Positions 717-53,960 of a DNA stretch of 64,000 bases are shown here, in pieces. This DNA is from Mycteria americana. Lineage: Eukaryota; Chordata; Aves; Ciconiiformes; Ciconiidae. The notes under the pieces are model-generated. The model worked only from the letters and a program-made list of their open reading frames with translations. It ran no database searches and was not told where the DNA came from. How positions within the stretch are numbered: position 1 is the first letter of the stretch; the number at the start of each line of letters is the position of its first letter. A program made the translations under genes and the position numbers. The stretch lies in NCBI RefSeq assembly GCF_035582795.1, contig NC_134372.1, forward strand, positions 37,734,316-37,798,315, read 5' to 3'.

Positions 717-844
717 CTCACCATTCTGACCAAGGTCAAGGTCAGTGGCAGACACCTGAATGACAAATGTCCCAACACCAGCTCCCTCTGTTACCGAGGC
801 TTCATAAATAGATGAAGTGAAGAATGGGACGTTGTCATTGACAT
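717..844 (-). CDS. Cadherin exon 14: EC10/EC11 linker and EC11 start (last exon in window)
   Basis: Residues 1089-1131. Reads [18 protein letters not shown], then [19 protein letters not shown]. The acceptor is TTTTAG|AT and the donor GAG|GTAAGC. Ends in phase 0; EC11 must continue in an exon left of the window. Confidence 0.85.
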
Positions 845-3800
845 CTAAAACATCAAAAAGAGCGCATAAAGAGAAAACTATAAAAATTGAAAGAAAAAAA
901 TAAGTACTATGATTATACTATAACATCACTGAACAGCTTACACACCTGTTACATTAATATAGACCGTAGTGAATGCTGCCAGAGGAACTGCGGCAACGTT
1001 CTGTGCTCGAACCCTCAGTAGAAAGGTCTTTGTTGTTTCATAATCTAGTGGCTCAGCTACCAGGATTGAAGCTGAACCATCGTGTCTGTTTGGAGTCAGG
1101 TAGAAACAAACTGGCATGTTGGTCTCTGGAAGAAGTCCCTCTTCTAGGTTATAAGTCACACGGGGATCACCGAGGGAAGAAGTTGCTTTGATTGTCTGCA
1201 CAGTTCAAAAAGTTTGCATAACCAACACTTTTGTAAGTACAGCAACGTTCTAAAAGCTTTTGTGTATTGACTCTCCCACATCTTCATCTCTCAACTGAAA
1301 ACACTAGGACAAGTATTTCCTGATACCAAAACTTAACCCTGCCTGATACATCTCCAGGCCACAAACAGCTGCAGCCAAAGGTTACCAGTCATTACATGTT
1401 TGGTTACTCATTCTGTTATCCTAAAAATATGTATTTTGGAGTTACTTCATAAAGCTATTCCAATTACTCATTCTGAGCAATCAAACTGAACAACTCTAAG
1501 CCCAAGCCCAGGTGATTACTGTAAGCCCAATAATCACCTCAGGTAACACAGAACCATTCAAAAAATTGGAACACCTATAGTGTTGGCCAAATGGGAAGGA
1601 AATTAAACAGTGGTTGCACACATATAAATTAGAGCAAAAATGCTGGTTATCATTAGCATTTCTGAAAGAAAACTGATAGCAGATCATTGGTCCCTACAAT
1701 ACACAAAATTGTTATAAAAGCTCACTATATTTAAGCAAATAAGCAATGTTCAATTAATCTAGAGCCTTACAGCTACAAACAGACAAACAAATCTGTCCCA
1801 GTCTTACCAAAACTGATGCATCTCGTGTAGTATTCTCTGGAACAACAACTTCATAGCTGTCTCTTTCCCACTGTGGAGGCTGGTTTTTTGCACTGGTAAT
1901 AGTTACCGCAAGTTCAACTTTACTGCTCCTATTACCTCCATCTGTAGCAATAATCTCTCGAATTATAGATGACCTCTGAACAGTAAAAAAGGTTTCGTTA
2001 CAGAGGGTTTTGATCAGGGCTCTGATGAACTCCCCCCCCCCCCCCCAAATACATAAAATTAAAGGCACACTTAGAAAAACCTGAACAGAAGAAAAACATC
2101 CACAACTGCAGAATACTGAGCTCAGAACATGAAGTAGGTGAAAGGCTGCTGAAAATTCTGCTATTTGTTTTACTTAAGATTGTTGGGAAATGTTTGCCTC
2201 AATAAACCTTAGCAAATTTCACACAAAGTTTAAAACAAAACCAAAAAACCCCACTTTGTGGAGCCCCTGAATTCTTAAGCTTACCTATCAACAGTTTTTG
2301 TTACTAGGTCTGTAGGGTTCTTAGATTCAATAAAGAAAATATATTAAAAGGATACACCTTCAACAAAGTTTTGTGTGTCAGTTACTTAGAAGTTAAATTT
2401 CAGTATGTTGTGGTTTAACCCCAGCCAGCAACTAATCACCACACAGCCGCTCACTCACTCCCTGCCCCGCAGTGGGATGGGGGAGAGAATTGGAAGAGTA
2501 AAAGTGAGAAAACTCGTGGGTTGAGATAAGAACAGTTTAATAATTAAAATAAAATTAAATAATAATAATAATAATAAGTCATAATATTGTAATGAAAAGG
2601 AAAACAACAAAAAGAGAGAGAAATAAAACCCAAATGATGCAAATGAAAAACAATTGCTCACCACCCACTGACCGAGGCCCAGCCTGTCCCCAAGCAGCAG
2701 CCCCCCGGCCAGCTTTCCCCCTAGTTTATATACTGAGCATGATGTCGTACGGTATGGAATAGCCCTTTGGCCAGTTTGGGCCACCTGTCCTGGCTGTGCT
2801 CCTCTCAGCTTCTTGTGCCCTCCCAGCCTCCTTGCTGGTAGGGCAGTATGAGAAGCTGAAAAGTCCTTGACTGAGTGCAAACACTGCTTAGCAACAATTA
2901 AAACATCAGTGTGCTATCAACATTATTCTCATCCTAAATCCAAAACACAGCACTATACCAGCTACTAGGAAGAAAATTAACTCTATCCCAGACGAAACCA
3001 GTACACAATATTAAAAATATCTACTAGGTATTTAAAGATTGATATGTACAACAATATTTTCGTTTCAATACAAATTACTTTACAACTCTGAAAATATCAA
3101 ACTGCTTATGCAGGTATCTAGAAATGGTTGAAACTCATAAATTTTAGATAACTACATGCAACAATTTTGTTCATTATGCCTTCACCTTCCTGAGGGATAT
3201 CTATGCTTAGTCCACCATGACTAACTTGTATCAAGTTGGGAATCTGTATCAGAAGCAAAATTTCACACTCTTTCACATTCAGGTTTGTGTCTTAACTCAT
3301 TGCCTGTTAACATAGTGAAGTCCTACACCTGGGTTCTTGCTCCTCTGCTTACCGTCTCAGCCCTCCAGTCCTTGGTATTAGTATGCCAAAGCTAATGAAA
3401 TGGGAAGAACAAGTTCTCAGAGGCAGTGCTGTCAGCTTTCCAGATGAAAGCAGGGCTTGCTTATATGCAATTCACGGCCAGTGAACTCATCAGCTAAAAG
3501 CCTTAGACTCATGTTTAATTTAAACATGATGTATTGATCCTTTAATGTGAAGGGGTAACATGGAGGTAAGGACAAACTCATGACCTCAGTCGCTCCTATG
3601 ATATATTGAGAAAGCCAGCTTAAAAAGGAAAGTGAGCACCATACCTGAGATATGGGTTGGTTCACAAACACCCAGCCTGTAGTAGGATTAATTTGTAAAT
3701 AATTTGGTTCTTCATTTGCTATTGAATATGTAATGGCAGCATTTGAGCTGTAGTCATCATCACAGGCTGCAACACGAAGAAAGCTGGTCCCAACTCTTGT

Positions 3801-6800
3801 GTCCTCTCTTAGGAAATCTAATGTAAGGAGAGGATATTTCAAACTGATCATTAATTCACTAAAGTACCATGAACATCTTATTAAGAAGTGAAGAAATACT
3901 AAAGTAATAATGTATGGAAGCTATAACTTTATCTTCCTTGGAACAATGGCCATAAAAATCAAAATTAGTATTTTAAAGAGCTGCTATCACTCCAGAGCTA
4001 TGGATTACATTTGAACTTCATATTATCACATTCATAACCTGGAATTCTTATTTCTCATAAGATACTACTTTTTTTTGTTTTGTATTTTTACTAAGGGACT
4101 AATTGCTCTGTATGAAATATACATAAATGGAATTTTAATTTATTGCATAAAACCATAAGAAAAGGACCACATTGTCAGAAACTACTTTCTAGGATTTGCG
4201 TAGTATAACTAACTGAGAATTAACAGTCTTCATTTTTTAATTAATATTCTACATGCCTCTGAGTGTTTATCATAAACAGGAAGGGTTTTTTGAAGAACCA
4301 AGAAGGAAAGGTAAAACAACAAACAATGAAGAACGATGAAATTCAAATGGGAGAAGTATGTAATCAAAAGTTATGACAAAAATCTATTAATAAGAAAACA
4401 AAGGATACAGTTAGTGCTCTGCGCTGCACATTCACATGCTTATTACAACTTTCACATCTCCGCGTAGTACCACAGACACTTGGTATACTCAGGTAAGGAA
4501 AGATACTGATATGGCCATTGTTTCAAGGAATTTTCCCATAATGACACTCAGGAAAGCCTACAAGTCAACACTGTACTTGTTACATTGCACATTACACAGA
4601 ATAACAATTCTGCAACTAATTAGGGTAAGTGCATCTCCGGCTGCAATCACCTAGTTGGTCACAAGATCTACTGCCAGGAAAGACAAAACCCAAAAATCTT
4701 AGACATCAGGTAAGCTCACACTCAGGGCACCGAAACCCTATCCAATGACTCTCAATTACATTCATAGTGGGTGTTTTCAAATCTGGGATCATTGTCATTT
4801 TGGTCCAGGATGATAACATTTATCTGACATATTCCAATGAGTGGTTCCGCTGCCTGATCTGTTGCTGTCACAGTGATAGGATATTCCCTCTGTTTTTCTC
4901 GATCAAAGACCTGAACAGTTGTCAGAACTCCTGAAAACAAATTCAATACCAGAGTTAAAATACTATGCATTTGACAATATTCTACATTTAGATGTTTATT
5001 TGTCTGTCCATACATTGAGATACGATGCTATAGGTTAAATACACCTATAATGTGAACTTCAGGTTCAAGGATCCAATCACAAGATTTAACAAATTTCAAC
5101 AGCTTAAATTGTATTCCTCAGGCAGATACAAACTTCATATACACCTACATCTACACACAACTGGACTTAAATGGAGAAAACATCCACCCAAGAGTACTGA
5201 AGGAACTGGCAGAAGTGCTCACCAAGCCCCTTTCCATCATTTACCAGCAGTCCTGGCTAACTGGGGAGGTCCCAGTTGACTGGAGATTAGCAAATGTGAC
5301 ACCCATCTACAAGAAGGGCCGGAAGGAGGACCAAGTGAACTACAGGCCTGTCAGCCTAACCGCGGTACCGGGGAAGCTGATGGAGCAGATCATCCTGAGT
5401 GCCATCACATGGCATGTAGGGGATAACCAAGGGATCAAGCCCAGCCAGCATGGGTTTAGAAAAGACAGGTCCTGCTTGACCAACCTGATCTCCTTCTACA
5501 ACAAGGTGACCAACTTAGTGGATGAGGGGAACGCTGTGGATGTTGTCTATCTAGACTTCAGTAAAGCCTTTGACACAGTTTCCCACAGCATTCTCCTGGA
5601 GAAACTGGCTGCTCATGGCTTGGGCGGGTGTACTCTTCACTGGGTAAAGAACTGGCTGGATGGCTGGGCCCAAAGAGTGGTGGTGAATGAAGTTTACTCC
5701 AGTTGGCAGCCGGTCACAAGTGGCGTCGCCCAGGGCTCTGTGTTGGGGCCAGTCCTTTTTAATACCTTTATCAACGATCTGGACGAAGGGATCGAGTGCA
5801 CCCTCAGTAAGTTTGCAGATGACACCAAGTTGTGCGGGAGTGTTGATCTGCTTGAGGGGAGGAAGGCTCTGCAGAGGGACCTGGACAGGCTGAATCGATG
5901 GGCTGAGGTCAATTGTATGGGGTTCAACAAGGCCAAGTGCAAGGTCCTACACTTGGGCCACAACAACCCCATGCAACACTACAGGCTTGGGGAAGAGTGG
6001 CTGGAAAGCTGCCCGGTAGAAAAGGACCTGAGCGTGTTGGTTGACAGCTGCCTGAATATGAGCCAGCAGTGTGCCCAGGTTTAGACTGGATATTAGGAAA
6101 TTTTACTTCATGAAAGGGTTGTCAAGCATTGGAACAGGCTGCCCAGGGAAGTGGTTGAGTCACCATCCCTGGAAGTATTTAAAAGACATTTGGATGAGGT
6201 GCTTAGGGACATGGTATAGTGGTGGTCTTGGTAGTGTTAGGTTTACGGTTGGACTCGATGATCTTAAAGGTCTTTTCCAACCTATATGATTCTGTGAAAA
6301 CAGAGATAAATACTAAACTAACTTTAAGAGAATCAGTTTATAAAAAATATTTCTTTTGAAGAGCAGTAAGTACAGGGTAAAAGCATGTTTCATGTCTTTT
6401 ATCCTCCACAAGTTCAGCCTGAATTTAGTTTGGCCTTCCAAGACTTAGTCTCTTTGCTGTTTGTAGCACTACTGTCATTTGGATAAATCGTTTATATGCC
6501 AATAGCAATATTGCAAGATAATGTGCACTTAAAATATGGTGTTTTTTTAAAATCTAGTTACAAAAGTTAAGAAGTTAATTCACACAGAAGAACTTCCACA
6601 TTTCAGGGAAAACACCAGTTCCAGTTCAGTATTGGACATGTATGAAACTAAAGGGAGAATATCTGTTCATGCAGTTAACACAATTTATATTTTGTCTGCT
6701 ATCAAGAAACTCAATGAAAAAGCACAAAGTCTGATTTAAGCTTTTTTTCCATCAGTGTAACGAAGTGGTTTCTATATGCCAATATCAGTTCTGATATTCG

Positions 6801-9800
6801 CTCTACCTGTGTCAGGGTGAATACTAAATGCTGGTAGGACACCACCTCTGTGCATCAAGCCGTATTTCACTAGACCATTGGCTCCTTCATCAGCATCAGT
6901 GGCTTCAACCTGCAGCACAACTGTCCCTGAAGGCTGGTTTTCCAATACAGAAGCATGTTCCTGATAATACTGACACTGAGAGGGGAGGAAAAAAAAAAAG
7001 AAAAATCAAGGACTTACCATGCCATTTGATTTTAAGATATACTAGAGGGGAAAAAAAAAGAAAAAAAAGATTTAGCTACACTTCCATTCACATGCACTGA
7101 TGTTAATGTTTTATCCGTACCATGATTAATCTACAGACTTCTCTTGCTATTTTGTGGTTATACAAACAACACAACATGAGGCCAATGAGCATCTCCAACT
7201 AGTGAAAATATGTGGAGAAAAAGTTACAGCTGCATATACTTCCAAATGTAAATATTGTTCTATGTTAGCAAAAGTCTTATAAAAAAAGAGGGCATACACT
7301 TGCCCAAACCACAGAATTGCTTTGGTCAAAAAGGGATTTCTACACAAAGTAACTTTGTCAAGGACAGATTACTAAGAATTTCCAAGACTGACATTAATAG
7401 TCACTGACTCTTCAAAATATCCAACACTGTCCGTCAACATTTTTGCCATCGGCATCAGACTTGAAATTTTAGACAACAGATCTTTAATATGAATTAACTT
7501 TCTGAAACCACAGTCAAGCATTTATTTTTTACAGTACTTTACAAATTAAGCTAAAACACTTTCATTCTTCTCTCTTTCATCAGTTCCAGACATACAATCA
7601 TCAAAAGAAGCCTATGTAATTTCGTGGAGTATTTTGGAATATTTTGGAACAAGTCCACTGCATAGATAGCTATACCTATCGATTCCTCATCACCTCTGTC
7701 ACACTGAACCTCCAAAAGTTATTTACTCAACCTTATCTTCTAAAATGCGAGATGAGATGTGGTTCAGGGAAGAGACAGTGCTCTCAGGAGCTGTTCTGCC
7801 ACAAGAGAACAAACCGTGTAAGTCTTAGGAGAGGGATGGAAAAGATGGAGAAGACAGTGGCATCAGAACTCGAAGAAAGACAAAAGCGGACCACTGCTTG
7901 AATAGCTCATCTGCTGCATCACTTGCAGTCACAACACAGTCTTAAACATTTACCACACAGTCCGATACAAATAACCGAGCCTCATATATTTACCTTCTGA
8001 AAGACAGGTTTGTTATTGTTGACATCATCAATTTTCACAACAACCTGGGCAGTACTTGTAAGAGAATGGGGCCCTCCAGAGGTGTTATCATCAGCAGCTG
8101 TGACATTAAGTACGTATTCTGTCCCCTGCAGCTTAGGAAACGGACTTGAACGAAGTCTAACTAGCCCTGTAAAAACAACAATAGGTTGTGGGGTTTTATT
8201 TTTTTACTACATTAACCATTAACTGTTATCCTTCTCACTAGTAAGCACGACAACAAACCTTTCTGGTTTACCCTTCACCAATAAACCACAAGGCTGCTAA
8301 AGTTTAATTTAACTATGGTATTTTTACTGCAGTCTGATATTAAAACAAAATTAAGACAGCACAACAGGTTTGTTTGTCTGCAGGTATGTCTACAGAGCTA
8401 AATGAGACAACACCTACCACTCAGCTGGCCTGCACATATTAGCTTTAGTCTATCTGCTGCACAAAAAACCAAACCAAAACAAAACAAAAAATCCAGAGAA
8501 ACATTGTGGCAGACTTCTGTTTAACCTGCACCAGCCTCACCAGTGAGCCTGGCTATGTTCCTGTATCATTATTGCAATGAAGCATGTGTCACCATGTCTA
8601 CAGTAGACACCATGTCTGGTAGCTACCCATGCTACCTCAATTGAAACTAGTAAAAGTTTACCTTCCTGCAGCACAATCATGGCAGCATTTAGCTATACAG
8701 ACATATCCTCAGAAACCTGTATTTTGCTACTCTCCCAAGTCACGCAAATGATACACCCTGCTGGGTGGGCATAAAGGCACTGTCAGAGAAAGATGTATGA
8801 AAGATTTGCTACAAAAGCAAAAGAGACTACAGCTATCTGAGACCACGCAGTAAGAAGCTGTCATTCTTTTGTTCCATCATCCATCAATCACCTCTATTAT
8901 TCATCAGGCGTAACAGCAATCGTCATTACAACAGAGTATTGTCAAAGCATCAACGTCACTCAATTTGCTTGCAGATGTATTGCTTTAGCTGCAGCACTTA
9001 TTTTTGACACATTTCCATTTTACCTTGGCATTTCTGTGACAAGGGGGTACAGACTATTCCCCTGACATCATTTCTGATAAGAAACTGCTGCAAACCACTG
9101 TATATACCTTTATTGGTTTATTAAGCAACAAAAGCCCAAAAGTGTTTTAAAAAAAATTGCTAAAGTTTCTAAAATTAAGCTTCAAAGACTATAAAAATTA
9201 ATTGATAAAAAAGTATAAAAGTAGGTATACATGATTATCTATATTAAAACTGTGGAGCTAATCCTAAGAGATGCTATCAATCAAATGTTAAGATTCTTTG
9301 AGCATTTACAGTAAAGATTTTCAGAAGTACCAGATATACTACCCCTGTGGCAATTAGACACTTTTAAAACCATCATTCCTCTTTAGGTGCCAACGTATCA
9401 TTAGAAATTTAACTCTTGGAACCTACAACTCTATTTCTAAGTCAGAAAGGATAAAAGGAGCTCTCCATAAATTCAGGATCACGCTCCAACACTTGCAAGT
9501 TACCTGCAGACCATATTTTTGGGAACATTTCAGAATCTAACATTAATAATGCAAAAACACAATTTGCATTGAAATTAAAATTTCATGCTAAGTGAACTCT
9601 GTGAAATAAAGAGGAGGAATAACTTAGGGCTGCTTACTCCTTCCTATATATTCAATGCTTGTGCTTTGAAAAATATAAGTTCAGTTTTTGACTGCAGTTC
9701 AAAACAGATTAAATATAAAGTAGTTTAACTGAAGTTAATTAAGTTACTTCAGTCTGTCAATGGGATTTCAATTTGGTTGCCTGTTTCTGTCCCAAAACAT

Positions 9801-12800
9801 CCTCTTTTGTTTTTTCAAGCAATGAACAGCAAATAAATCCTATTAATTTAAAGGGATATGCCAGCCTACTCAAGTGACATGTGTTTGTGCACTTTTTTTT
9901 TTAATTTTTTTTTTTAAATGAGGACACCCATGTTGTGAGATTTTTTCCTTTGGGGTTTTAAGAATATGCAACTGCTGAAAAGAATTTTAAAATATGTAAA
10001 AACTGGTATTTCAGAACAAATGACTTAAACTGCAAAGTATTCTCCACACATTTTTTTTTTCTCATGCATGTAGTATTCTTGGCTAAATAACATTGCTCAT
10101 GTGAATGATTTTGTCCTTAAATGAAAAATATACTTCCTGAGTTCATATTCTCTATACTTTTGCCTTCATTAAAATAAAACAGTGGCAGTCTCATTCCGCC
10201 TGCAAATGCATCATTTTGTGTCAGTACAACACAAGTAAACTCGGCTAAGAAGTGTTTGCCCACACATGCATAATCAGGACATAGACATAAGCAGGGGGGA
10301 AAAAAAGCCTCATCTAAAAACCCAAATGCCCACTTTAAACCAGTTAAAACCGAGTTATTAAAAAGCTGCACAAAGAAAACTTCTCCAGTCAGAACTGTCA
10401 TCCTATTGTTTTATTCTCGTCACATGGCTATTTGATTAATAATAGTGTCTTTGGCTGATGGCAGCAGGCGGATGTCAAGCTCTGAGCACACCAGCAGGCC
10501 TTGCAAACTCTTCCTCCCGCTCCCTGGGTTTGGCTGCCCATGTTCAAGGCCAGCTCTGACACCGTGCAGCCGGCTAGCCTTGGATCAGGCAGTTGTCAGA
10601 AGCCTTTCTGTGGCCTCTGCCCCGTGTCTTGGGAGCTGTGCTTAAGCCCAGGTCTTTTCCCGAGCTCCCCCGGGCATGTGCTGTACCTGGCCACGTATAT
10701 TGCTAACCCCGACACTGCCTTGCTGACTTGGCTTCCCAGCTTGACCTGAGACCTGCCTCATCACTGCAAATCTGTCTGGTGACAGTGGGCTGTTGGATGA
10801 ACCGCGTTTATATCACGGGACCTGCTCTGCTCTTCTTGCTCCGGATGGTGCCCTGTGGCTGTGAGGTCCCGGCCCCTGCCTGCCTTGCTGTCACCCTTGA
10901 CTCCTATTTCACCTTACCCTGCAGAGTAGCCCCTTCTTGCTACAACTTTGAAACCAGTCTCCTAGACTAAATGTTATTCAAATCCTTGTTTGACATTTTG
11001 GAACATCACCGTTATCAACAATAACATTCTCTATTAAGTTACTGTCTATTAAGTTACCTGTTATCTATAATAATGCTCTGTGTTAAGTTACTGACTGAAA
11101 GCAAACAATGAAGAAGTAAGGTCAATTATACCAAGCTTTTAGGAAAATGATACGACTTTTTTGATATTATAAGAGAATCTACAATAATTTCATCTTTTTC
11201 CTGCATTTTTTTTAATTAGGTTAGTATTAGCTTCAAAAACAGCGTATGCTATTCAGTTTTTATAATTGCTACCCAATGAAGACCAAATTCAAGCTGCATC
11301 ACATCAGAATCAACATTATGACTGCAGCAGCAAAGAGCTAATATAGTATTACCTTTCTTAGGGTCAATAACAAAGTTTTCTTTTTGATTCCCAGACAGAA
11401 TATCGTATGTCACACCATCTCCATCAGGATCAAGAGCATTAATTGTAGCAACCAGTGTGTTTGGGCCTGCATCTTCAGAAACAAAACTCCTGTAGCTGTT
11501 AAAAGAAATTATGACAGCACATCTATGAATTTAGACAGGAAATAATATACAGAGAACTACAATGCCTTTACAATGCCTACTGACTACATGTACAAAGGGT
11601 ACTGCAAAGATTTGTAATTTATTAATACAATTACACTGATAAGATGTAACCAGTGAACCAGTAAAATGATAGTATTGATGATTTATCCAACCATTCAGGT
11701 CTTTCTGTTGTTACCTCCCACAGACTGCCATTGCAAACTTTCAGCAGTATTGAAGCTCTGAAGCTTAGCTTCGCAACAAGACTTGGGCTAAACACAGAAT
11801 TCATTTTTTTTTTAATTTAAAAAAATGAGTTGCATGATTCACAGAATCAAAGCAAACATTTGCTAAGTTAAAGTATTGCTTGTTATAGCACATCTTCTGA
11901 CAGAAGCTCTCAAAATGCTTTCAGTGTAGTCTTTGCACCAGCACGACTAAGATGAGAATCAGATCTGGAGGATATGCACATAATGTCAGTTTTACAAAAA
12001 TCTCTTCTCAAGTCCAGACACATCACTGACATTGTAAGCTCTTAAGAGGCATTATCAGCCTAAGCTTAACGCTCTCCGGAGTAGAAAAGCCCCCTGCTTT
12101 AGCAAAGTCCCAGATATTTATTATTTTATCTGACTGGATGGAGCATAGGCCAGACTAAGCATGCTACAGACCTGTCCATAGTAGATATCCCAAAGCTCAG
12201 CCATAAGAATGAACTACAGCTGGCTGTATCCAACAATATAGATAAAATACATATGTGCCCCTGGGTTCAGAGTGCTTACGGACCCACTCTCCACATGCTG
12301 AGAATAAGAAAAAATTCAAAGAAAAAGAAAATGGATGCACAGAAAACCTCTCCCTTAGCTTTTGTTGTCTTCGTAGATATGTGTGTTTTCATCAAAACCT
12401 TCACAGAAACAGCTTTTTTCTTCCCCCAGTTTAATATGCAATGAAGTAAGAGAAGTAAATTATTCTGATTTAGCCCAGTCACAACCCTCAGGACACTGTC
12501 TTAACTCTGCATCTGGAAAGCAAATGAACAGTAATTCTGATAATTTTGAACATGAAATATAGGGACAGAAGAGTTTAAGTCATCGGAAGAGGTCTCTTAA
12601 AAAGGAGAAAGTAAAAACTGACAAAATGAAACAGAGTGGTAGCCTTAAGCATTTCATAACTGAGATAAAGAATAACAGTGATGAAAGAAAGCTTGTGGCA
12701 AGGAATTTTAAGTTTATGCTGGACTGTAAATCTGTTTAAACAATAGGCTAGAAGGACAACATCATCATCTTGATTTGCATTAGCCTGCCACAGAGCATAA

Positions 12801-15800
12801 CATTAATTGCAAGCTAGTCTCTCAACAGGGCCTAATTTACAGGTGTTCATGATGAATCTATTTCACAGAAAACTTCAGCTAAGTTCTGTCTGAAATTCAT
12901 CTTTGGGTTCAAGTTTTTTTTCATAATGGGAAAGATAAAGCAAAAATCAAAGCCTGGTTAACCTGCTTAAACAAAAATTTGAGATAATTTGAATTTCAAG
13001 AGCTGAATTCGATTCCAATGCCAATCTACACGTATATACAACAGCAGTTTCCCTGCTATTGCATAGGGAACAGAAAAGCTTCTTGTGAATGTTTGGTAAT
13101 TTAAAATAATGTTCATTTTAATCGTATTCTTCAGTAAACGTGAAATATAAGAGCTGGCAGGGTTGGTTTTTTTTAAACTATGTTTTCTGCTTCCAATTTG
13201 TTAGAGATGTTTACAGCATCTTTAATACTATCACTCATTTCTGATTAAAAAATTAGGAACAGATACAAGACAAACAGATACAGATAAATATTCAATGACT
13301 CTGAATATTAAAACAAACAAATAAATGAAAAATACGCATCATCTCAAGAGTGAGAAACTTAATCTGTTTAGTGTTTGAAAATGCATAGAGATCCAATAAG
13401 AATTTACAAAAGAGCAGCTTTTCCAAGCCACTTCTCCTAAGCAATGTTTAGGAAAGAAAGGAAGGCACAAGATTTTGAAGCCAGAGGCTACCTTTACATA
13501 AAATAAGGACTGTCAGAATGCTTTGATGTTTTGTTCAGCTAAACCACAAGCTTAGTATCACTGAAATCTCTGCCTGGGTTTTGTTCTGAGCAACTTCTAC
13601 TTTTAAGAGTAGAGGGCTGATGGAGAAGCTGACTGGGAATTCCATTACTAAGCCTCTAATGCATATGCAACTTTATAGTACTTTTGACACTGCTTCAGAA
13701 GCTTCTGAGTGCCAACTATGGAAGAAAAATGCTTACTGATGCTTTAGAAGAAAAAAAAAAGTACAGTTTGTAGGGCATGGGACTAAGTGAAATTAAGTGA
13801 ACTCCACTTACTGACATTTATCTTGTGGTTTTTAATAATTCAGTGGTCATTTAGGATTCTGTCATCTAAGCATTTTTCTTTAACAGTTATAAACCAGGGA
13901 TGCAGACTGTTGACTCTGTCTAAGCTTAAATCGCCTAATTAAAAGGCAAGATTCCACCATGTACTCCGGATGAGGGCTGAGGACAACACTGAGTTGCCTG
14001 CTTTTTCTGCTTGATTTCCTTTGGTGGTGGAGGGGTCCTCCTGAAATATATACTCTGAAATTACTGCACCACCTTTTTCAGTACATATTGGTAAAAACAT
14101 AAGTGCAAGATCTGTCAAAAGAGGCTGTCTATATACTATCTCTATTTAGCTAGACCCACAAGTCCTACTATACATTGAAAGTATGCCTAAAACTTAAAAT
14201 TAAGAACTAAACTTAAAAGCTGCCTTTTTTTTTTTTCTGGTAGTAAGAGAGTCTCAGAGTCAAAAGATCATCCCACATTTGTCAGTCCAACTCTCAGATT
14301 TTGATTGAGCCGAAGCCAGTTACCATCCTGTAACGATCAGCTTTTCAACTAAAATATAAAAAGCAAAGTAAAAGACAAAGATAACAGAGTTTTAAGAATA
14401 CGTATTTACATTGTTTGAGAAAACTCAGGTGCTTCATCATTCACATTTGAAACATGGATCCTAACAGTTGCTGTCCCAGTCTTCGGATCTTCCCCTTTAT
14501 CTACAGCCATAATTATGAACTCATAAAGATGGTTAGGTCGCTCATAGTCCAACCGTGTTGTTGGAAAAATAGTACCATGAGAAGTAATACTGAAGTCTTG
14601 ACTCAAAGTGTAATATAGTAATTCGGCATTCTCTTTTGAATCACAGTCAGTGGCTGTCACTATTAAAAGAGAAGAGAAAGACGTTGCGTAGATCAAAGTT
14701 TGTGAATTTGAATGTTAAGTACTTTAACAAGAGAATTTGTGTGTAGTGTAGTATAAAACTGTAACAGCATTTGCCTTGGCATGTGGTGCTTGAAATAATT
14801 TATAAAACTGTGCTATCCCCTCTGCTTTTTATTGAACTAACCCTTACTTGAAAATAAGTTGTTTAAAAAAAAAAAAAAGTTAAGTCCCTGGTTGAATTCA
14901 GCCACTAGATCTTGCCTTTGCCTGCTGGATTTAAAGAGCCCTGTACTGCCAAGAACATATTCCCGCACAGAGACATATCTTCTCATGTCCACCTGACCTA
15001 CAGTGCTGACTTAAGATCACTCGGACAGACTGTGTGTGATTAAAGATGAAATATTTACATATATTATTCAACTGATGCAAGTTATGGGTTTGTCAGATCC
15101 TACTCATAACCTACATAAACCTACGCTAAAAGTGCAGTTACCAGAATAGTAACTGACAGACTACCATTAGTACAGGATAAATCACTAAGTAGAACAGTAG
15201 CAGGTTATAAAATCCTGTTTAGTAGGGAACAGCAATTTTCCTGTAGTTCAATTTCCTTTTTCCCCCTCAAGATTTATAGAAAGTTTATGTAACGGTTAAA
15301 GACTAATATAAGGCCCTTCTACAACTGCTTAGCTGACATAAATTTGTTTTATTGCTAGGACCTGCTCATTTCTTTATAAACATTTTCAATAAAAGATTTT
15401 TGCAGTTTACAAAATCAAAATTTAAGTAATTTACAGAGCATCATCATTTAAAGCTTAAGTTATTGGTTACATTAGGAAGAAGCAAAGTCTTTTTCTCAAG
15501 CATCAAAACCAAACCTCACATAAAACAGTTAAACCATGCAAGAGGCTTTTAAAGCAAAAGAGCAGTATTCTCTACAGCAAGCCCACATAGGGCTCTTAAA
15601 GACGGGCAGAGAAGGTGAGCTGACGTGCCCATAATTTCTGATCCAACATCCATCAGTCTCTTCCTTCAAAAAAAGAAATGTTGCAAGATTGCTACTATAA
15701 GCCTGCTGCTGTAATACCAACCACAACTGAAGTCCTGTTACTTCAAAATCCTACCAAGATTTGTTTCCTCTGTCTCCCGTCCCCCAAAATTGTTTGGGTT

Positions 15801-18800
15801 GTGGCAGTAGTAAATAATTATCACCCAATTCTACAAGGTGCCATTTGCCTTCAGAGAGTTGCAACTACCCATGCTGGGGTAGGTAATCTTGCCTTCTGAA
15901 CTGCATTCTAATTAGCAGGAGGGAAAAAAAAAACTCATACTGAATGTAACAAATCATTTTAAAAGTACTAACCTTGTAGAAGTGCAGTTGTCATAGTAAC
16001 TGTTTCAGGAACATCAACTTTGCTGTAAATCGACTGATGAAATTCAGGGGCACAATCATTCACATCTGTGATTACAACCAAAACCTTAATGGAGAAGAGG
16101 GGAATGTTAAATAGCAAAGTAAATCAAGGCAACAACTTTGTTGCTCTAGAAATATCGGATGGAAGAATTTCCCAAAAACATCCTTGAGGTCTTCAGAAGC
16201 ACATAGGATAAGCCATTTTTCTTAGATTGCTCTTTTCCTGCTGATAACTGTTGAAATATTAGATTCCAAAATATTAGGAACTGCCAAGTCCTAGTCCCCT
16301 GCAGCAACATTTTCCACTCACCCTTCCTCTCCATTGATTATTCCCTACTACTAATTTAAAGGAAGATGGACTGTCTGCTTTCCAAGCATCCTTTTTCCAT
16401 TATCGTACCTTCCAACACTTCTGTGATTTGTAACACTAAAAATTCTACTGCCAAGCATATTACATTTTAGCAGTATAAGTCTCCAAGACCAAGTTCTGAA
16501 TTCAATTACAGCAGCATAAATCAGACATAAATGGACTGATTATGGTAAAGCAAGTCAGAAATACAATTCTGCTTCTAACATCTTTAAAAATGTTTTCTTA
16601 TTTCTATGTCACATATGAGTCCACAATTGCATTGTTTACAATCCAAACAGTAAGGAGAGTGTTAAATTAGCCTTTATGGCGGTCCGTACTGCTGCACTTC
16701 AGACTGTCTGAAGTTGGTTGAGGTATTCTGCACTACAGTGCAACAGGTAGACGTATAATCCATCTACCCTTACATAGGTTCGTATAAACGAGGAGTTGCT
16801 CTCTCTTAACTATTGAGGTTGTATCAGTGTAAAGCAGGTACAAGTTAAACTACGTTTAGGCTAAATGTATTTGTAAAATTATCTCATAATCCTCTTTCAA
16901 GTCATATCCTACCACTCTTCATCTTGCAATACATAAAAGGGTCAATAGAAATTATCAGTCTCTGGTGTGCTACAGCTACTGTTCATTACATTGACATACT
17001 GTTTCACTGTCTCTCTGTGTCCTCACACTTGTTCCTAATAATTCTGCCTCCTATTTGCTCTATAGTGTACATCTTATTTCCTGCAGCAGGAACAAACTGT
17101 TATATTGCATGCATTTCCTAGCTCAGTGAATCCTTGAATTCAAACAACTGTAATAATTATACTCAGAAGTATTTTTGCTGTCAAACTGCTTTCTAAAACA
17201 CCATGAACCATCATCTTTTAATACCTGTGAGTTTTTATTACTTTGACTCTTTACATGTGCACTTCGTGTTCTCGATACAAAGCAAATAATTTTCTGTTCT
17301 GCCTTTCTTTTAAATTGGAATAATCTCAAATATACATCATACTTTATGAAGGTTTAGAGTAAGACAAAACTTCATGTCTGGCTTGGCCGCATCTGTTTCC
17401 ATATCTTCCCAGATAAGGCCTAGGACCTATGATGGGATGGCATATTGATCCCTCAGAAATAGCCTTTTCAGCATCTGCAAGAGTGAACTCTAAGAGTACC
17501 TAAACCAGCCCTCAACATCTACCCATACACAGAAAGACTAACATCTACCCATAGACAGAAAGACTTTTAAAATGGACAATAGAATAGACAGCATGAGCTG
17601 GGGAAATGAGAGCCCCTAGTGAATCTGTACAGAAATCTGGAAAGGCTGAAGGAAAATGGAAATACATACAGACTGCCAGAAGTGAACACCTACCTCAGCT
17701 GCACTACCGAACTGTTCCTCATCTTCCTCTGCTCTGACCAAAAGAAGATACTGGTGTTGGTCACTCTCATAATCCACGCTCCGAGTTAAACTGATATCTC
17801 CTGTTGCCCAGTCAATACTGAATAGACCACTAGGATTAGTTAGTAAACTGTAGCTCAGGGATTTCTTTTGATACGATACAGCAGTGACTGTAAGAAAGCT
17901 GCATTTAAAAAAAAAAAAACAAAACAAAACAAAACAAAACAAACAGGGCTCTTAAGCACGTAATACAACATACTGAAAAATATGACAAAAATTATACGTA
18001 TCAGAAATGATGGTGCAGTCCTGTAGGTCTGATCAGAGCAATACTCACTCGAAGTCAGTGATAGCTGTACCTAAACACCAAATTTAAACATTTTGTTATA
18101 CAGTAGTTCTATCTTCTTGAGGTTAAACAGATAAAGATAGGATTTTTTGAAGCAGAACACAGTAAGGATTAAAAACACAGGAACAGAGGATTTCATTTTT
18201 GCTGCAACTGAATTTGCCTACTCTAACTTTCTTCTACAGTAGTGATGGTTTTCAGGCAGCAAACTAAAAGATAAAGCAAGATGCAAAAGATTTTAATAAC
18301 GGCATGGTAAGTTTGCTGCTGCAGTCATACCACCTTAAAGCTTCAACAGATAACTGCAAAAGAATAAAAGCTAGTCACTAACAGCATGCACATTACAGGT
18401 CATACAGGACATATGCTTTTAGGTCTTGTCTGGCACTATCTTCTTTCCACTGAAGTCCAATGTGTCTAAAGGCTTCAAGTGGGAAAAACACTTGCAGTAT
18501 GAAGCAAAAGAAGAAATTAAAAAATAAATATTTTTAAAGGGTTTAAAACAGAATACTAATTCCTCAAGTGTTTGTTGCTTTATCGTGCGAGTTTCTTAGG
18601 AAAAAGAATTCCATCTCCCAGGAGAACCCACCAACATGTATGATCCAGTGACAACTACAATCAAAAAGACAAAACTCAGTTTGTCCAAACACCTTTTTCC
18701 CCGTTGTATTGCCATGCTGCCATTTCTCGCTTCCCTCAGGTGCACTACTGAAACAATGGAAAGGGTTGCTGTAGGTCATTATCTCACTTTAGTCTTCTTC

Positions 18801-36800: not shown

Positions 36801-39652
36801 AAGCGTTTGTGTTTTGGAAATTGGTCTATCAACCTCTTGGTTAGCAGCCAAAGCTCAAGCTGGAACACAGTGCAAAGCCAGTGCAAGTGACTGACACCAA
36901 TATGCTACAGCGATAGGCATGACAAAAACCAAGTGAGAACGAGAGAAGGATCTGAGAGTTGTTCCTCAGGACCTGAGTGAAATGAGTTGGTGATCCAGCA
37001 GGCTTCACAGGGGGAAGTATCCGTGTCACTGAAACTGTCAGCACTAATTAGAATCCCTGCAGGCATCCTCAGGGATTTAACAGACACCAAGGAATAAACT
37101 GCCTCTCACTCCTATGGGCTGCCCCTCAGTCAGAAAACAGAAGAGACGAGGGAAAGGAGCAGCATGGGAAGCTTTTCATCTCTCCCGCCTGCGCTGCTCT
37201 GTGGCTAACAGAAGTTACTCTGTGCAGTTGCACTGCTGAGAAGATCATAGTTTTCACAAGCACTAGAAGTCATGTAATACAAAACCCTTCCTAAACCTTT
37301 CCAAGATGAAATCAAGCAACCAACTCTTTTCTGCTGATACAATTTTCTCCAGAATACTCACATTCTAGACAATCTTCAGAATACTGTTACAATCACAAGT
37401 AACAGGGAAATAACAAGAGACATGGTGAACGTACACAGATATCCACCATCCGGTGAATCAAAGATATGCTTAAACTAAGCTGTATTTTCATAGGTGAAAA
37501 ATACTAACCAAGAGGACAATTCAGAATTTAAAAAGAATTTGAAAAAGTAAAAGATGTAATCAGCCAGAGATAAATGAAACGAGCTATTCTATTTAACTTC
37601 AGTAAGACCCCGTGAATACTGATGACGATTTAAATCACAAACGTGCCATTTTAATGGTGCACATTGGACTCCCCAGATTTTTTAAAAAAGAGCAGCCTCA
37701 TAAACACAAAGGCACCAATCTTGCAAAAACTCACATCATGCTTGTGAGTCAAACATGCTTAACTTTAATAACGACTCAAAACTCAAGGACTTCAGCTGCG
37801 TGCTTCAAGTTAAGCATTTACAGGATCAGACCTATGGGAAGCATTTTAAGAGAAAACACTCACGTGCAAGAAGCACGGTATACCTAACGCGCTTTGTCTC
37901 AACGTGCATATAACATAAGTAACGCTCTTTGGTGACACTATGCGTTTTCCATGCTGCTCATTAATGACTAAGAATTTGAACAGGTGAAGTTGTTAAATTC
38001 TGATAACCACCTTACTGCTCCAAGCATTTTTACATAGCTGCACACTCCATGTTCACTAAAGTACGTAATGCTTCTTGTCACCTACAATGTTTTAATAATT
38101 TACAGATTTAAAAGATCAAAACTACATTCCACAACATAACGGCACGTGACGCCTGATGCTAAACCATCGCTACGTGCCCGTTGTCACTTGGGAACTTTTT
38201 ACCCTCAGAAAGCCAAACCACCCTCCACCGTCCTGGTGGGACGAGACCGCTACTCTGGGTAAGACGCAACCGTTTTTGCGGCTGCAACCGCGGGGGCGAG
38301 CGCAGCAGCCCGCGTCCGCGGGCAGCCCCTGCCCTCACGCCCGCGGGCAGCCCCTGCCCCCACGCTCCCGGGCAGCCCCTGCCCTCGCGCCCCCGGGCAG
38401 CCCCTGCCCTCGCGCCCCCGGGCAGCCCCTGCCCTCACGCCCGCGGGCAGCCCCTGCCCCCACACTCCCGGGCAGCTCCTGCCCTCACGCCCGCGGGCAG
38501 CCCCTGCCCCCACGCTCCCGGGCAGCCCCTGCCCTCGCGCCCCCGGGCAGCCCCTGCCCCCACGCTCCCGGGCAGCCCCTGCCCTCGCGCCCGCGGGCAG
38601 CCCCTGCCCTCGCGCCCGCACCTACCTCGGCGCTCCTGGACGCGGACGACGAGCTCCCAGGCGGCCGCCGCCTCCCTGTCCAGGGCCGCGGCCAGCGTCA
38701 CCTCGCCGCTCTCCCGCTCCACGCGCACCGGCGACGCCTCGACGGGCGGCGACACCAGCTCGAACCAGGCGGAGGCGAAGGGCGCCGGGGCCAGCGTGGC
38801 CAGGCGGCCGCCCGGGCGGGCGTCCTCGGGCAGGGAGAGCGCCAGGGGCGCGGCGGGCGGCAGCAGCGCCCGGCGGCGGCGGCGGGCGGCGGCGCGGGGC
38901 GGCGGCAGGCGCTTGGCCTGCGGCAGCACCTCCAGCTCCAGGGGCTCGCTGAGCAGCGCCGGCCGCCCGCGGTCCCGCGCGTAGAGGCGCAGCGGGATGG
39001 GCGCGCGCAGGTGGAGCAGGGAGCGCACCAGCACCACGCGCCCGCTGCGCGGCACCACGAAGAAGTGCGCGCTGCGCGGGAGGGCGAAGTAGCGCAGCTC
39101 CGCGTTGGCGCCCGCGTCCGCGTCCTCGGCGCGCGCCTGCCACACCTGGGACTTGAGCGCCAGCGTCTCCTCCACGCGGAGCTGCGTGACGCCGGGGCGC
39201 GGCCCCCCCACGAAGCGCGGCGCGTTGTCGTTGTCGTCCAGCACGCGGACGGTGAGGGCGGCCAGCTCGGCGGCCGCGGCGCCGCGGGGCGGGCAGCGCT
39301 TGCAGCACAAGCCCAGGCGGAAGGAGTAGAGCGCCCGCGCCTCGCGGTCCAGCGGGCGGCTGGTGCGCAGCCAGACGCGGGCGGTGCGGGCGTGCAGCGA
39401 CACCCGGAAGTGCGAGTGGCCCTCGCCCAGCAGCTGCAGGCGCCAGCGGCGCCCCTGCACCTTGGCGCACCAGGGCTCGGGTCCCAGCCGCGTCAGGGGG
39501 ATGCTCAGCCCGCGCACACGCGTGCCCGCCGGGCGGTTCTCCGCGACGTGGCCGCCGAACGAGGGTCTCCTCCGCGGGGCGGCGCGGGCGGCGGCCAGGG
39601 CCCAGCAGAGCAGCAGGCAGCCGGCGACGCGCCGGGCTCCGCGGGGGCCCAT
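717..39652 (-). CDS. Giant cadherin, probably type III (Drosophila N-cadherin-like / Hz-cadherin), N-terminal 1131 residues, 3' end off window
   Basis: Large cell-surface adhesion protein. Seen: 14 exons on the minus strand (38626-39652, 21488-21685, 20384-20609, 17694-17898, 15973-16084, 14410-14659, 11353-11495, 7994-8166, 6807-6975, 4760-4930, 3645-3817, 1808-1975, 946-1195, 717-844), all with GT-AG introns and matching phases, totalling 3393 nt with no stop. A signal peptide (about residues 1-24) is followed by roughly ten and a half EC repeats. Calcium-type linker motifs fall near residues 139-145, 357-361, 559-565, 661-667, 768-775, 877-883 and 1089-1094. No transmembrane segment is reached, so the EGF/LamG and cytoplasmic parts would lie left of position 1. 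Family: repeats 8-11, with NNNKPVF, the LDYETT block and DVNDNVPFF, recall Drosophila N-cadherin. Fat or Dachsous cadherins are the alternatives; long EC arrays occur there too. A cadherin is certain; the type III assignment is inference from remembered family sequence. Confidence 0.85.
946..1195 (-). CDS. Cadherin exon 13: EC10 body
   Basis: Residues 1006-1088. Contains [16 protein letters not shown], a hydrophilic insertion ([17 protein letters not shown]), then [18 protein letters not shown] and FTTVYINVT. This block is the one most reminiscent of Drosophila N-cadherin. The acceptor is GTGCAG|AC and the donor ACAG|GTGTGT. Confidence 0.86.
1808..1975 (-). CDS. Cadherin exon 12: EC9 second half, start of EC10
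   Basis: Residues 950-1005. Contains [12 protein letters not shown]. The EC9 end is SAKNQPPQW (978-986) without the DxNDN acidic residues, followed by [16 protein letters not shown]. The acceptor is TTCAG|AG and the donor TTG|GTAAGA. A 15-base C run lies about 57 bases upstream of the acceptor. Confidence 0.84.
2032..2046. repeat. C15 homopolymer run
   Basis: Fifteen consecutive C on the plus strand (a G run on the cadherin sense strand), about 57 bases upstream of the exon 12 acceptor. Such tracts are unstable and error-prone in assemblies. Confidence 0.9.
2406..3005 (-). mobile_element. Solo LTR of a neoavian endogenous retrovirus (ERVL-like)
   Basis: About 600 bases bounded by TG...CA. 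On the minus strand it begins with the GGTTTCGTCTGGGATAGAG block and ends in GGTTAAACCACA. In order it carries a TATATAAA box (2725-2732), an ATTAAA polyadenylation signal (2536-2541) and a terminal pyrimidine-rich/GC-rich end. The pattern matches a common neoavian LTR family I recognise from memory. Flanking pentamers are CAGTA and CAATA, a possible diverged target duplication. It lies in cadherin intron 11 in the same orientation as the gene. No internal retroviral genes are present. Confidence 0.75.
3645..3817 (-). CDS. Cadherin exon 11: EC9 first half
   Basis: Residues 892-949. Reads [16 protein letters not shown], then [16 protein letters not shown] and [14 protein letters not shown]. 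The acceptor is ATTAG|AT and the donor CAG|GTATGG. Confidence 0.84.
4760..4930 (-). CDS. Cadherin exon 10: EC8 second half
   Basis: Residues 835-891. Contains [18 protein letters not shown] and ends [16 protein letters not shown], a full calcium linker. The acceptor is TTTCAG|GA; the donor GAAT|GTAATT is weaker than the others. The upstream intron (4931-6806) holds a CR1 copy in the opposite orientation. Confidence 0.84.
5160..6297 (+). mobile_element. CR1 LINE copy, 5'-truncated and internally deleted
   Basis: An open frame from about 5170 to 6081 encodes the fingers and palm of a non-LTR reverse transcriptase. Visible are NVTPIYKKG and NYRPVSLT, motif [14 protein letters not shown], motif B QGSVLGP and the catalytic FADD (5812-5823). 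The frame then stops at 6082-6084, because the sequence jumps to the CR1 tail (WNRLP-type segment in another frame, then the 3' UTR ending in an ATTCTGTG unit near 6296); the thumb/C-terminal part is missing. It is a dead copy and lies antisense in cadherin intron 9. CR1 is the main bird LINE, which supports the avian origin. Confidence 0.92.
6807..6975 (-). CDS. Cadherin exon 9: EC8 first half
   Basis: Residues 779-834. Contains [11 protein letters not shown] and [17 protein letters not shown], a canonical EC A and B strand with calcium loop. Two CAG acceptors are possible six bases apart; I chose the upstream one, because it keeps the usual four residues between the linker PxF and the next Tyr (VFQKCQYY). 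The donor is ACAG|GTAGAG. Confidence 0.83.
7994..8166 (-). CDS. Cadherin exon 8: EC7 second half
   Basis: Residues 721-778. Contains [18 protein letters not shown] and ends in [14 protein letters not shown], a linker variant with NNN in place of NDN. The acceptor is TTTACAG|GG and the donor AAG|GTAAAT. Confidence 0.84.
10465..10960 (+). repeat. Unidentified interspersed repeat, copy A
   Basis: A GC-richer block of about 490 bases in cadherin intron 7, clearly homologous to the reverse complement of 33535-33950. Shared segments include GGGTTTGGCTGCCCATG, AGAAGCCTTTCTGTGGCCTC and CTTGCTGTCACCCTTGACTC. The copies differ by substitutions and small indels, including a longer stretch around 10630-10680 in this copy. 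I do not recognise the family; an LTR or a LINE 5' region are possibilities. Open frames across it are incidental. Confidence 0.75.
11353..11495 (-). CDS. Cadherin exon 7: EC7 first half
   Basis: Residues 673-720. Joining to exon 6 restores an Ile codon and gives [18 protein letters not shown], then [15 protein letters not shown], an EC repeat with the acidic DPDGDG loop. The acceptor is AACAG|CTAC and the donor AAAG|GTAATA. Confidence 0.84.
14410..14659 (-). CDS. Cadherin exon 6: EC6 body, start of EC7
   Basis: Residues 590-672. Contains [17 protein letters not shown], then [20 protein letters not shown], and the linker NVNDEAPEF (661-669). The acceptor is AATAG|TGACAG and the donor ACAAT|GTAAAT. 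Confidence 0.86.
15973..16084 (-). CDS. Cadherin exon 5: EC5/EC6 linker
   Basis: Residues 553-589. Reads [15 protein letters not shown] followed by [10 protein letters not shown], the end of EC5 and first strand of EC6. One linker residue is cysteine (DVNDCAP) where Asn or His is usual. The splice sites are ATTAAG|GT and CAAG|GTTAGT. Too short (112 nt) to stand out as an ORF; found by phase matching between exons 4 and 6. Confidence 0.82.
17514..17565. repeat. Two-copy 26-bp tandem repeat
   Basis: Two consecutive 26-base units (17514-17539 and 17540-17565) differing at one base, in cadherin intron 4 about 130 bases past the exon 4 donor. Confidence 0.85.
17694..17898 (-). CDS. Cadherin exon 4: EC5 body
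   Basis: Residues 484-552. Contains [14 protein letters not shown] and [16 protein letters not shown], the typical EC pattern. The chosen acceptor is ATGCAG|CTTT; the alternative TTACAG a few bases downstream breaks the frame. Its polypyrimidine tract is made of a (GTTTT)n repeat and a T run. The donor is GAG|GTAGGT. Confidence 0.85.
17907..17943 (-). repeat. A13 + (AAAAC)n microsatellite at the exon 4 acceptor
   Basis: A run of 13 A followed by about five AAAAC units on the plus strand. On the cadherin strand this is (GTTTT)n-T13 directly before AAATGCAG, so it serves as the polypyrimidine tract of intron 3. Confidence 0.9.
20384..20609 (-). CDS. Cadherin exon 3: EC4 body, start of EC5
   Basis: Residues 409-483. 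Contains the cadherin strand pattern [12 protein letters not shown] and [13 protein letters not shown]4 ends with GFRPPQF (460-466), lacking the acidic DxNDN linker. EC5 starts with [11 protein letters not shown]. The splice sites are TTTTTAG|GT and AAATC|GTAAGT. Confidence 0.85.
21488..21685 (-). CDS. Cadherin exon 2: end of EC3, start of EC4
   Basis: Residues 343-408. The acceptor is ATTAG|GA and the donor GAAG|GTAAAT. The join to exon 1 (phase 1) gives [14 protein letters not shown], a sensible last strand of EC3, followed by [10 protein letters not shown] (356-365). EC4 then shows the usual VDADEG motif (392-397). It sits after the 16.9-kb first intron. Confidence 0.85.
33535..33950 (-). 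repeat. Unidentified interspersed repeat, copy B
   Basis: Second copy of the repeat at 10465-10960, in the opposite orientation, in cadherin intron 1. The two copies are 22.6 kb apart and form a long imperfect inverted pair within one transcription unit. Confidence 0.75.
35310..35366. repeat. Direct repeat, copy 1 of 2
   Basis: About 56 bases repeated at 36136-36192; the first 45 bases are identical, followed by one substitution and a one-base shift near the end. The copies are 826 bases apart, in cadherin intron 1. Confidence 0.9.
36136..36192. repeat. Direct repeat, copy 2 of 2
   Basis: Copy of 35310-35366 in the same orientation. The flanking sequences are unrelated, so only this short block is duplicated. 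Confidence 0.9.
38320..38619. repeat. GC-rich 25-bp minisatellite, 12 units
   Basis: Twelve head-to-tail 25-base units, each starting GGGCAGCCCCTGCC, with exact 25-base spacing (starts at 38320, 38345 ... 38595). Variable positions define a few unit types (TCACGCCCGC, CCACGCTCCC, TCGCGCCCCC, TCGCGCCCGC endings) arranged partly in alternation. The array begins six bases inside cadherin intron 1, next to the donor. As 25 is not a multiple of three, every frame reads through it as Gly/Pro/Arg/Ala-rich sequence, which creates spurious long ORFs on both strands. Confidence 0.95.
38626..39652 (-). CDS. Cadherin exon 1: signal peptide, EC1, EC2, start of EC3
   Basis: Encodes residues 1-342 plus one base of codon 343. 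The ATG at 39652 has G at -3 and G at +4 and is followed by a hydrophobic leader ([12 protein letters not shown]), so I chose it over an in-frame upstream ATG at 39922 that would place about 90 low-complexity residues before the leader. EC1 ends in [10 protein letters not shown] (residues 138-147). EC2 contains an [14 protein letters not shown] block (175-188) but ends without a DxNDN linker. EC3 begins near residue 270. Cysteines occur at 62 and in a CCKRC cluster (116-120). An arginine run is at 257-261. The donor is GAG|GTAGGT. The exon is extremely GC-rich and rich in Arg, Ala, Pro and Leu, unlike the other exons. Confidence 0.88.
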
Positions 39653-44092: not shown

Positions 44093-44124
44093 CTTATAAT
44101 CAAATTAACTTATAATCAAATTAA
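44093..44124. repeat. Two-copy 16-bp tandem repeat
   Basis: CTTATAATCAAATTAA occurs twice in a row in intergenic DNA. Confidence 0.85.
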
Positions 44125-53259: not shown

Positions 53260-53960
53260 CCACCGGCACTCTCCCTCGGCCCGCCCCTACGGCCTAGGCC
53301 GGGCAGGCGGCGGGCGCCTCGAGCGGGAAGCGGCTGCGCCATGAGGCCAGGCCAGGCCAGGCCCAGAGCCGCCGCGCTCACCCGCTCGGCAGCGCCTTCG
53401 ACGGTGGATTCGTAGCGCCTGGCGTGGCGGCGCAGGCGCAGTGCGGTGCGGGGCACTGCGGCTGCGCGACCGCCCCGCAGGCATGGCGGACGAGGAGCTG
53501 GAGGCGCTGCGGCAGCAGCGGCTGGCCGAGCTGCAGGCCAAGCACGGGGTAAGGCGCGGGGCCGCCCGCCCCGCCGCCGCCCCGGCAGTGCCCCCGCCCC
53601 CTGCCGCCGGGCTGGGGGGAGGCGGGCGCTCGCCGGCTGCGGCAGGGCATGTCCTTCCGCCCCAGCCTCCCTCGGACGTGTGTGGCGGCCGCCTCTCAGG
53701 AGCGCAGGAGGGGGAACGGGGGAGAGGAGAGGGCGCGCCTTGAGGAGGTCGCTGAGTGAATAAAGGCTTCGGCTGGAGGCCGGGGGTGAAGGGGGAAGCG
53801 GCCCTGCCGTGCCCGGGGCTTTGGCTGGAAGCGTCGCCGACTGCGGCCTCGGTTACTGGCGCCCGGCGCGGGGGGGGTGGGTGGGTGGGGGGGGGTGAGG
53901 ACCGGCCGGGCCCCCACGGCCACCTCCTCTCCTGCTGCAGGAGAAGTCATCGCCTTCAGG
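53260..53960. promoter_or_regulatory. CpG island promoter of PDCD5
   Basis: A GC- and CpG-rich block surrounding exon 1 of PDCD5, with G/C runs and no TATA box near the likely start (about 53400-53480). The short ORFs on both strands are by-products of the composition. Confidence 0.8.
53483..53548 (+). CDS. PDCD5: PDCD5 exon 1 (coding part)
   Basis: Encodes residues 1-22, an acidic/basic N-terminal helix ([15 protein letters not shown]). Donor GGG|GTAAGG, phase 0. Confidence 0.97.

What the first reader, a model, noticed from the sequence alone, without database searches (positions are those of the whole stretch)
717..39652. A giant cadherin of the type III (N-cadherin of flies / Hz-cadherin) class beside PDCD5 in a bird
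Seen: 14 in-phase exons encode a signal peptide and more than ten EC repeats. Repeats 8-11 recall Drosophila N-cadherin more than Fat or Dachsous. Established: a chick type III cadherin (Hz-cadherin, of retinal horizontal cells) has been reported, and mammals are said to lack the class. Inference: this locus is that gene, and the interval between DPY19L3 and PDCD5 in mammals may mark where it was lost.
Basis: partly seen in the sequence, partly recalled or inferred. Interest (0 to 1): 0.75.

Follow-up and report, generated by a model that had tools for sequence, protein, structure and literature searches.

The report
Bird type III cadherin, Hz-cadherin's paralog
The window holds the front half of an intact, very large cell-adhesion gene of an ancient type that birds, reptiles, amphibians and fish carry in two copies; it is the sister copy of the known chick Hz-cadherin gene, not that gene itself.

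Summary
The 14 exons at 39652-717 (minus strand) chain in phase into exactly 1131 residues. Carried on to the left in the same genome they form a 33-exon gene of 2869 residues without internal stop. It has a signal peptide, a basic furin-like site after EC2, 17 clear EC repeats plus one weak, an NC domain, EGF and two laminin-G domains, a membrane span and a catenin-binding-like tail. That is a type III classical cadherin. It lies between a DPY19-family gene and PDCD5.

The identification as chick Hz-cadherin is wrong. The same genome has a second 33-exon type III cadherin on contig C2, beside another DPY19-family gene. The chick protein labelled cHz-cadherin is 86% identical to that copy and 54% to the window gene, and groups with it. 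The window gene is the paralog; fish rows call it si:ch211-186j3.6. Both clades run from cartilaginous fish to birds, so the split seems older than living jawed vertebrates (midpoint root). No row listed for either copy names a mammal. The mammalian interval could not be examined.

The parts
38626..39652 (-). exon 1: ATG, signal peptide, EC1, EC2, basic furin-like RRRRR site (residues 257-261), most of EC3
21488..21685 (-). exon 2 (phase 2)
20384..20609 (-). exon 3
17694..17898 (-). exon 4
15973..16084 (-). exon 5
14410..14659 (-). exon 6
11353..11495 (-). exon 7
7994..8166 (-). exon 8
6807..6975 (-). exon 9
4760..4930 (-). exon 10
3645..3817 (-). exon 11
1808..1975 (-). exon 12
946..1195 (-). 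exon 13
717..844 (-). exon 14, last in the window; exons 15-33 follow to the left on contig C8 (37734160 down to 37704288, outside the window)
38101..40100 (.). CpG island (300-base windows, flagged starts 38101-39801) over exon 1, the likely promoter region (inferred)
53483..56632 (+). PDCD5, neighbouring gene pointing away; three coding pieces seen, starting about 53483, 56026 and 56537
   Evidence: exon ends not modelled

Best explanation
The finding is the 5' 14 of 33 coding exons of an intact type III classical cadherin gene: the paralog (probable 2R ohnolog) of chick Hz-cadherin, called neural-cadherin-like in birds and si:ch211-186j3.6 in fish. Shown by sequence: a complete in-frame gene, the type III domain order, and a catenin-binding-like tail, conserved from sharks to birds. 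Inferred: the precursor is cut by furin after EC2. The mature protein then binds its like on a neighbouring cell through the calcium-stiffened distal EC repeats, and passes force to actin through p120, beta-catenin and alpha-catenin. By analogy with fly N-cadherin and Hz-cadherin it acts mainly in neurons, in sorting or positioning processes and synapses.
For: Gene model: 33 exons, GT-AG at all 32 introns, 8610 nt, one terminal stop. Domains: PF00028 in 8+7 stretches, PF24811 (DE-cadherin NC) E 6.6e-23, laminin-G in two places, EGF in two places, PF01049 E 7.9e-20. Tail aligns residue by residue with E-cadherin of entry 1i7w, E 9e-18 (that 1i7w is the beta-catenin complex is recalled). A basic site lies in the same place in the 6 of 7 compared relatives that have residues there, shark included. 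92% identity over full length to the Indicator protein. Paralog on C2 with 33 exons, 33 of 33 exon lengths equal modulo 3, 25 of 33 identical. The 240 relatives listed split 120/120 by which copy they are nearer. Tree of 36 rows (2 own, 34 picked by me from the 240): two groups of 18, 100% SH-aLRT, Callorhinchus in both, chick cHz-cadherin with the C2 copy. Macaw contigs predicted to encode cHz-cadherin align to the expected regions of chicken and zebra finch chromosome 2 (PMC3648530, passage).
Against: In the PDB the highest summed score is CELSR1 (411 bits over 6 stretches), not fly N-cadherin (174 bits, one stretch); the best single CELSR1 stretch is lower (153.7 bits) and the fly chains there are short, but this comparison alone would not fix the class. 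Two Pfam models named after other cadherins also pass their cut-offs as whole-protein scores: FAT4-like PF25374 (60.8 and 57.1 bits) and CELSR2-like PF23592 (46.3 bits in one of two pieces); I read these as EC repeats matching EC models. The tree has no outgroup, is rooted at the midpoint and used the quick method. The C2 exon ends were chosen with the window gene's phases in view. That P0160 is the cloned Hz-cadherin rests on its database name. No expression or binding data exist here; neuronal use is analogy.
Confidence: 0.93

Rival explanations
1. The locus is chick Hz-cadherin itself.
For: Right class, and a bird; Hz-cadherin is the bird member that the papers found cite.
Against: The protein labelled cHz-cadherin isoform X3 [Gallus gallus] (P0160) is 85.9% identical to the C2 copy and 53.8% to the window gene, and groups with the C2 copy inside a clade of 100% support. 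Macaw contigs predicted to encode cHz-cadherin align to chicken and zebra finch chromosome 2 (PMC3648530 passage); P0160 itself lies on a contig of 149.9 million bases.
Confidence: 0.04
2. A FAT, Dachsous or CELSR-type atypical cadherin.
For: CELSR1 has the highest summed score in the PDB; the FAT4-like and CELSR2-like EC models of Pfam pass their cut-offs; laminin-G and EGF domains also occur in FAT and CELSR (recalled).
Against: NC domain PF24811 and classical tail PF01049; no FAT, DCHS or CELSR name among the 120 listed of 3727 relatives.
Confidence: 0.01
3. A decayed or partial copy (pseudogene).
For: Several bird entries are partial or of low quality; a few weak splice sites.
Against: 8610 nt open without internal stop, every junction GT-AG, 85 to 94% identity to Indicator in each of five protein regions.
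Confidence: 0.02

Closest known systems
neural-cadherin-like / CADN of birds and reptiles; fish si:ch211-186j3.6 (list)
   Same: Ortholog: full-length match, 92% to Indicator indicator, 82% to Emys, 63% to Polypterus, 62% to Heptranchias
chick Hz-cadherin (cHz-cadherin; fish si:dkey-22o22.2)
   Same: Same class; its ortholog here has the same domain order and exon phases
   Different: Paralog on another contig, 53% identical (1496 of 2832, C2 copy against window gene); LG2-CE3 39% and cytoplasmic part 41% are among the least alike
Drosophila N-cadherin (DN-cadherin)
   Same: Type III layout as described in PMC5473995 passages; one 311-residue collinear stretch in PDB 3ubh
Vertebrate type I cadherin (E-cadherin)
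   Same: Cytoplasmic tail aligns with the E-cadherin tail
   Different: Ectodomain of 17-18 EC plus NC, EGF, LamG instead of five EC (PMC8325961 passage)

Membership tests
Type III classical cadherin | 14 to 17 EC repeats | tested here: met
   17 clear EC matches plus one weak (21 bits) just before the NC domain; the definition is from passages of PMC5473995
Type III classical cadherin | NC domain after the last EC | tested here: met
   PF24811 Ig_Shg (DE-cadherin), E 6.6e-23, at residues 100-240 of the third piece scanned
Type III classical cadherin | CE1-LG1-CE2-LG2-CE3 order | tested here: met
   EGF, LamG, LamG, EGF in that order; the middle Cys-rich CE2 (residues about 2338-2394) was seen by eye only and has no Pfam hit of its own
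Type III classical cadherin | single membrane span and catenin-binding tail | tested here: met
   hydropathy maximum at residues 2668-2688; PF01049; alignment with the E-cadherin tail. Met as sequence only
Type III classical cadherin | binds catenins and adheres homophilically | not testable with these tools
   needs protein or cells
Ortholog of chick Hz-cadherin | closer to cHz-cadherin than the other type III gene of this genome | tested here: not met
   C2 copy 85.9%, window gene 53.8%; tree
Ortholog of chick Hz-cadherin | position homologous to chicken chromosome 2 | tested here: inconclusive
   window gene is on C8, the cHz-like copy on C2; macaw cHz-cadherin contigs align to GGA2/TGU2 (PMC3648530 passage). 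Contigs here bear no chromosome names and were not mapped to chicken
FAT / Dachsous | best relatives are FAT or DCHS proteins; no classical catenin-binding tail | tested here: not met
2R ohnolog pair with Hz-cadherin | both clades hold cartilaginous fish and bony vertebrates; shared neighbouring gene families | tested here: met
   Callorhinchus in both clades; a DPY19-family gene beside each copy. No outgroup or lamprey row, and the cyclin check gave nothing usable, so 2R itself is an inference
Absent from mammals | no mammalian ortholog | tested here: inconclusive
   no row names a mammal in the 120 listed of 3727, 120 of 1749 or 120 of 2708 (many rows unnamed); PMC10734073 passage speaks of 'an apparent loss in mammals'

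The most novel reading that the evidence does not exclude
Jawed vertebrates began with two type III cadherin ohnologs, each beside a DPY19-family gene. Sharks, bony fish, amphibians, reptiles and birds still keep both. The mammalian line lost both, so mammals gave up the whole ancestral adhesion class at two unlinked loci, and the window's copy has a nervous-system role that no paper found here describes.
Probability: 0.6. Interest if true: 0.5.

Novelty: already known. Interest (0 to 1): 0.38.

Why it matters
The papers found cite chick Hz-cadherin, or in one case a cichlid sequence (PMC5473995), as the vertebrate example of type III; no passage I saw mentions two copies. Here one bird genome holds two type III genes of equal layout, so statements about 'the' vertebrate type III cadherin, including its loss in mammals, concern two genes. 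Naming the window gene Hz-cadherin would attach the horizontal-cell data to the wrong paralog. It also makes a test possible: why birds keep two giant cadherins that mammals appear to do without.

Tried and rejected
A first automatic exon finder with strict splice thresholds found few true exons. A chained search crashed because the acceptor of exon 24 (LG1) lay inside its anchor; inspection solved it. Two acceptors of the first full model (exons 20 and 29, both outside the window) were wrong: alignment with relatives showed 4 residues too many and 3 too few, and they were corrected. Rfam found nothing in the window at its gathering scores. A cyclin C-domain search meant as a check of ohnologous neighbourhoods gave nothing usable, and the cyclin N-domain search did not complete. 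Paper searches for CDHN and for neural-cadherin-like with paralog listed nothing relevant. The one paper found that names the fish ortholog reports brain expression changes under methylmercury (PMC11447911, passages); that is not evidence of function. FAT, DCHS, CELSR and pseudogene readings were considered and rejected (see rivals). Structure prediction and fold search were not run: they would add little to clear family matches.

Full report
Observation. The window is C8:37734316-37798315 of a 1.35-Gb genome. Cadherin repeats are not in doubt: PF00028 gives E = 4e-118 over this part. Ten EC repeats are complete in the window and the eleventh is cut. That the genome is a bird's follows from its nearest relatives (Indicator for this gene; bird rows for the C2 copy).

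The rest of the gene. Adjoining DNA holds 19 more exons down to C8:37704288. The corrected model has 33 exons, 8610 nt, 2869 residues, GT-AG at every intron, a single terminal TAG. Two acceptors outside the window were corrected after comparison with relatives. Order along the protein: signal peptide, EC1-EC2, a RRRRR stretch (a basic site is present in the 6 of 7 compared relatives that have residues there, shark included), EC3 to EC17 and one weak EC-like match, NC domain, EGF, laminin-G, a Cys-rich piece, laminin-G, EGF, membrane span, tail with PF01049. The tail aligns with the E-cadherin tail of PDB 1i7w.

What class. The layout meets the published definition of type III cadherins (PMC5473995, passages seen: 14 to 17 EC, then NC-CE1-LG1-CE2-LG2-CE3). 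The 120 listed of 3727 relatives include no FAT, DCHS or CELSR name; where a row has a protein name it is neural-cadherin, neural-cadherin-like, CADN or si:ch211-186j3.6, and some rows are only hypothetical, unnamed or uncharacterized proteins. They come from birds, turtles, crocodiles, lizards, amphibians, lungfish, ray-finned fish, shark and chimaera. Against this: in the PDB CELSR1 has the largest summed score (411 bits in 6 stretches); fly N-cadherin has 174 bits in one collinear stretch, more than the best single CELSR1 stretch (153.7), and only short fly chains are there. Two Pfam models named after FAT4 and CELSR2 repeats also pass their cut-offs.

Which gene. A fish type III protein (P0064) searched against the bird's own genome hit this locus (782.5 bits) and a second place, C2:149336100-149337731 (699.6 bits); the next match elsewhere has 283.9 bits (53 matches listed, only the best candidates scored). 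Reading that region gave a second complete gene: 33 exons, one GC-AG intron, 2871 residues, 53% identical (1496 of 2832), with 33 of 33 exon lengths equal modulo 3 and 25 of 33 identical. Its exon ends were chosen with the first gene's phases in mind, so the phase agreement is partly built in; the splice sites are nevertheless there. Relatives of the C2 copy include 'cHz-cadherin isoform X3 [Gallus gallus]' (P0160). That protein is 85.9% identical to the C2 copy and 53.8% to the window gene. All 120 rows are nearer to the window gene and all 120 nearer to the C2 copy. In a tree of 36 rows (the two genes and 34 rows I picked from the 240; quick method, midpoint root) the two groups of 18 are separated at 100% SH-aLRT support, both contain Callorhinchus, and chick cHz-cadherin stands with the C2 copy. 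The scarlet macaw genome paper says that contigs predicted to encode cHz-cadherin align to the expected regions of chicken and zebra finch chromosome 2 (PMC3648530, passage). So Hz-cadherin is most likely the C2 copy, and the window gene is its paralog.

Neighbours. Left of the gene, convergent, is a DPY19-family gene whose exons run in profile order from C8:37668261 to 37696403. Right of it, divergent, is PDCD5. The second cadherin also has a DPY19-family gene next to it, C2:149261705-149284960. Together with the tree this points to a duplicated block; that it dates from the 2R genome duplications is inference, since no lamprey or invertebrate row was available and the cyclin check gave nothing. 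That the C8 gene is DPY19L3 in particular rests on the recalled human gene order.

Mammals. I read the names in the lists: none of the 120 listed rows, or names a mammal. Many rows carry no name. The unnamed rows most like the query (P0241-P0243, P0245, P0247, P0248, P0355) are 85 to 98% identical to a named bird, crocodile or lizard protein; many others are nearest to fish at about 61 to 68%, and one (P0343) has nothing nearer than a frog at 64%, so it is unassigned. Lists are cut at 120 and limited by length, so this is support, not proof. [quoted passage not shown] The mammalian DPY19L3-PDCD5 interval could not be read.

Mechanism. Likely: prodomain (EC1-2) removed by furin, then homophilic binding by the distal EC block, NC-EGF-LamG region near the membrane, tail coupled to catenins. 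[quoted passage not shown] For this gene these steps are inference from sequence. Expression site is unknown; the fish ortholog's brain expression changes under methylmercury in one study (PMC11447911, passages).

Novelty. Orthologs are annotated in public databases, so the gene is known as a sequence. I found no paper setting out the two vertebrate type III copies in the searches. That library lacks most subscription papers; the original Hz-cadherin report (Tanabe et al. 2004) was seen only as a cited reference.

Noticed in passing
contig C2:149295836-149355169 (+) of the same genome; L020-L026: A second complete type III cadherin gene, 33 exons, 2871 residues; the ortholog of the chick protein labelled cHz-cadherin.
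   Followed up: yes
38319-38617: GC-rich tandem repeat (period 50, 5.8 copies, 92% matches; or period 25, 12 copies) starting just inside intron 1, next to the donor of exon 1.
   Followed up: no
contig C8:37689377-37690528 (-), L013: 384-residue open frame that reads like a CR1-type reverse transcriptase (family recalled, not tested), lying between two exons of the DPY19-family gene.
   Followed up: no
40139-53100: About 13 kb between the divergent starts of the cadherin and PDCD5; the longest stop-to-stop frame listed is 122 aa. No family search was made of these frames.
   Followed up: partly
contig C2:54813556-54854767 (+): A third DPY19-family gene; no type III cadherin match is listed near it.
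   Followed up: partly
window 845-945: Intron 13 is only 101 bases long while intron 1 is 16940.
   Followed up: no
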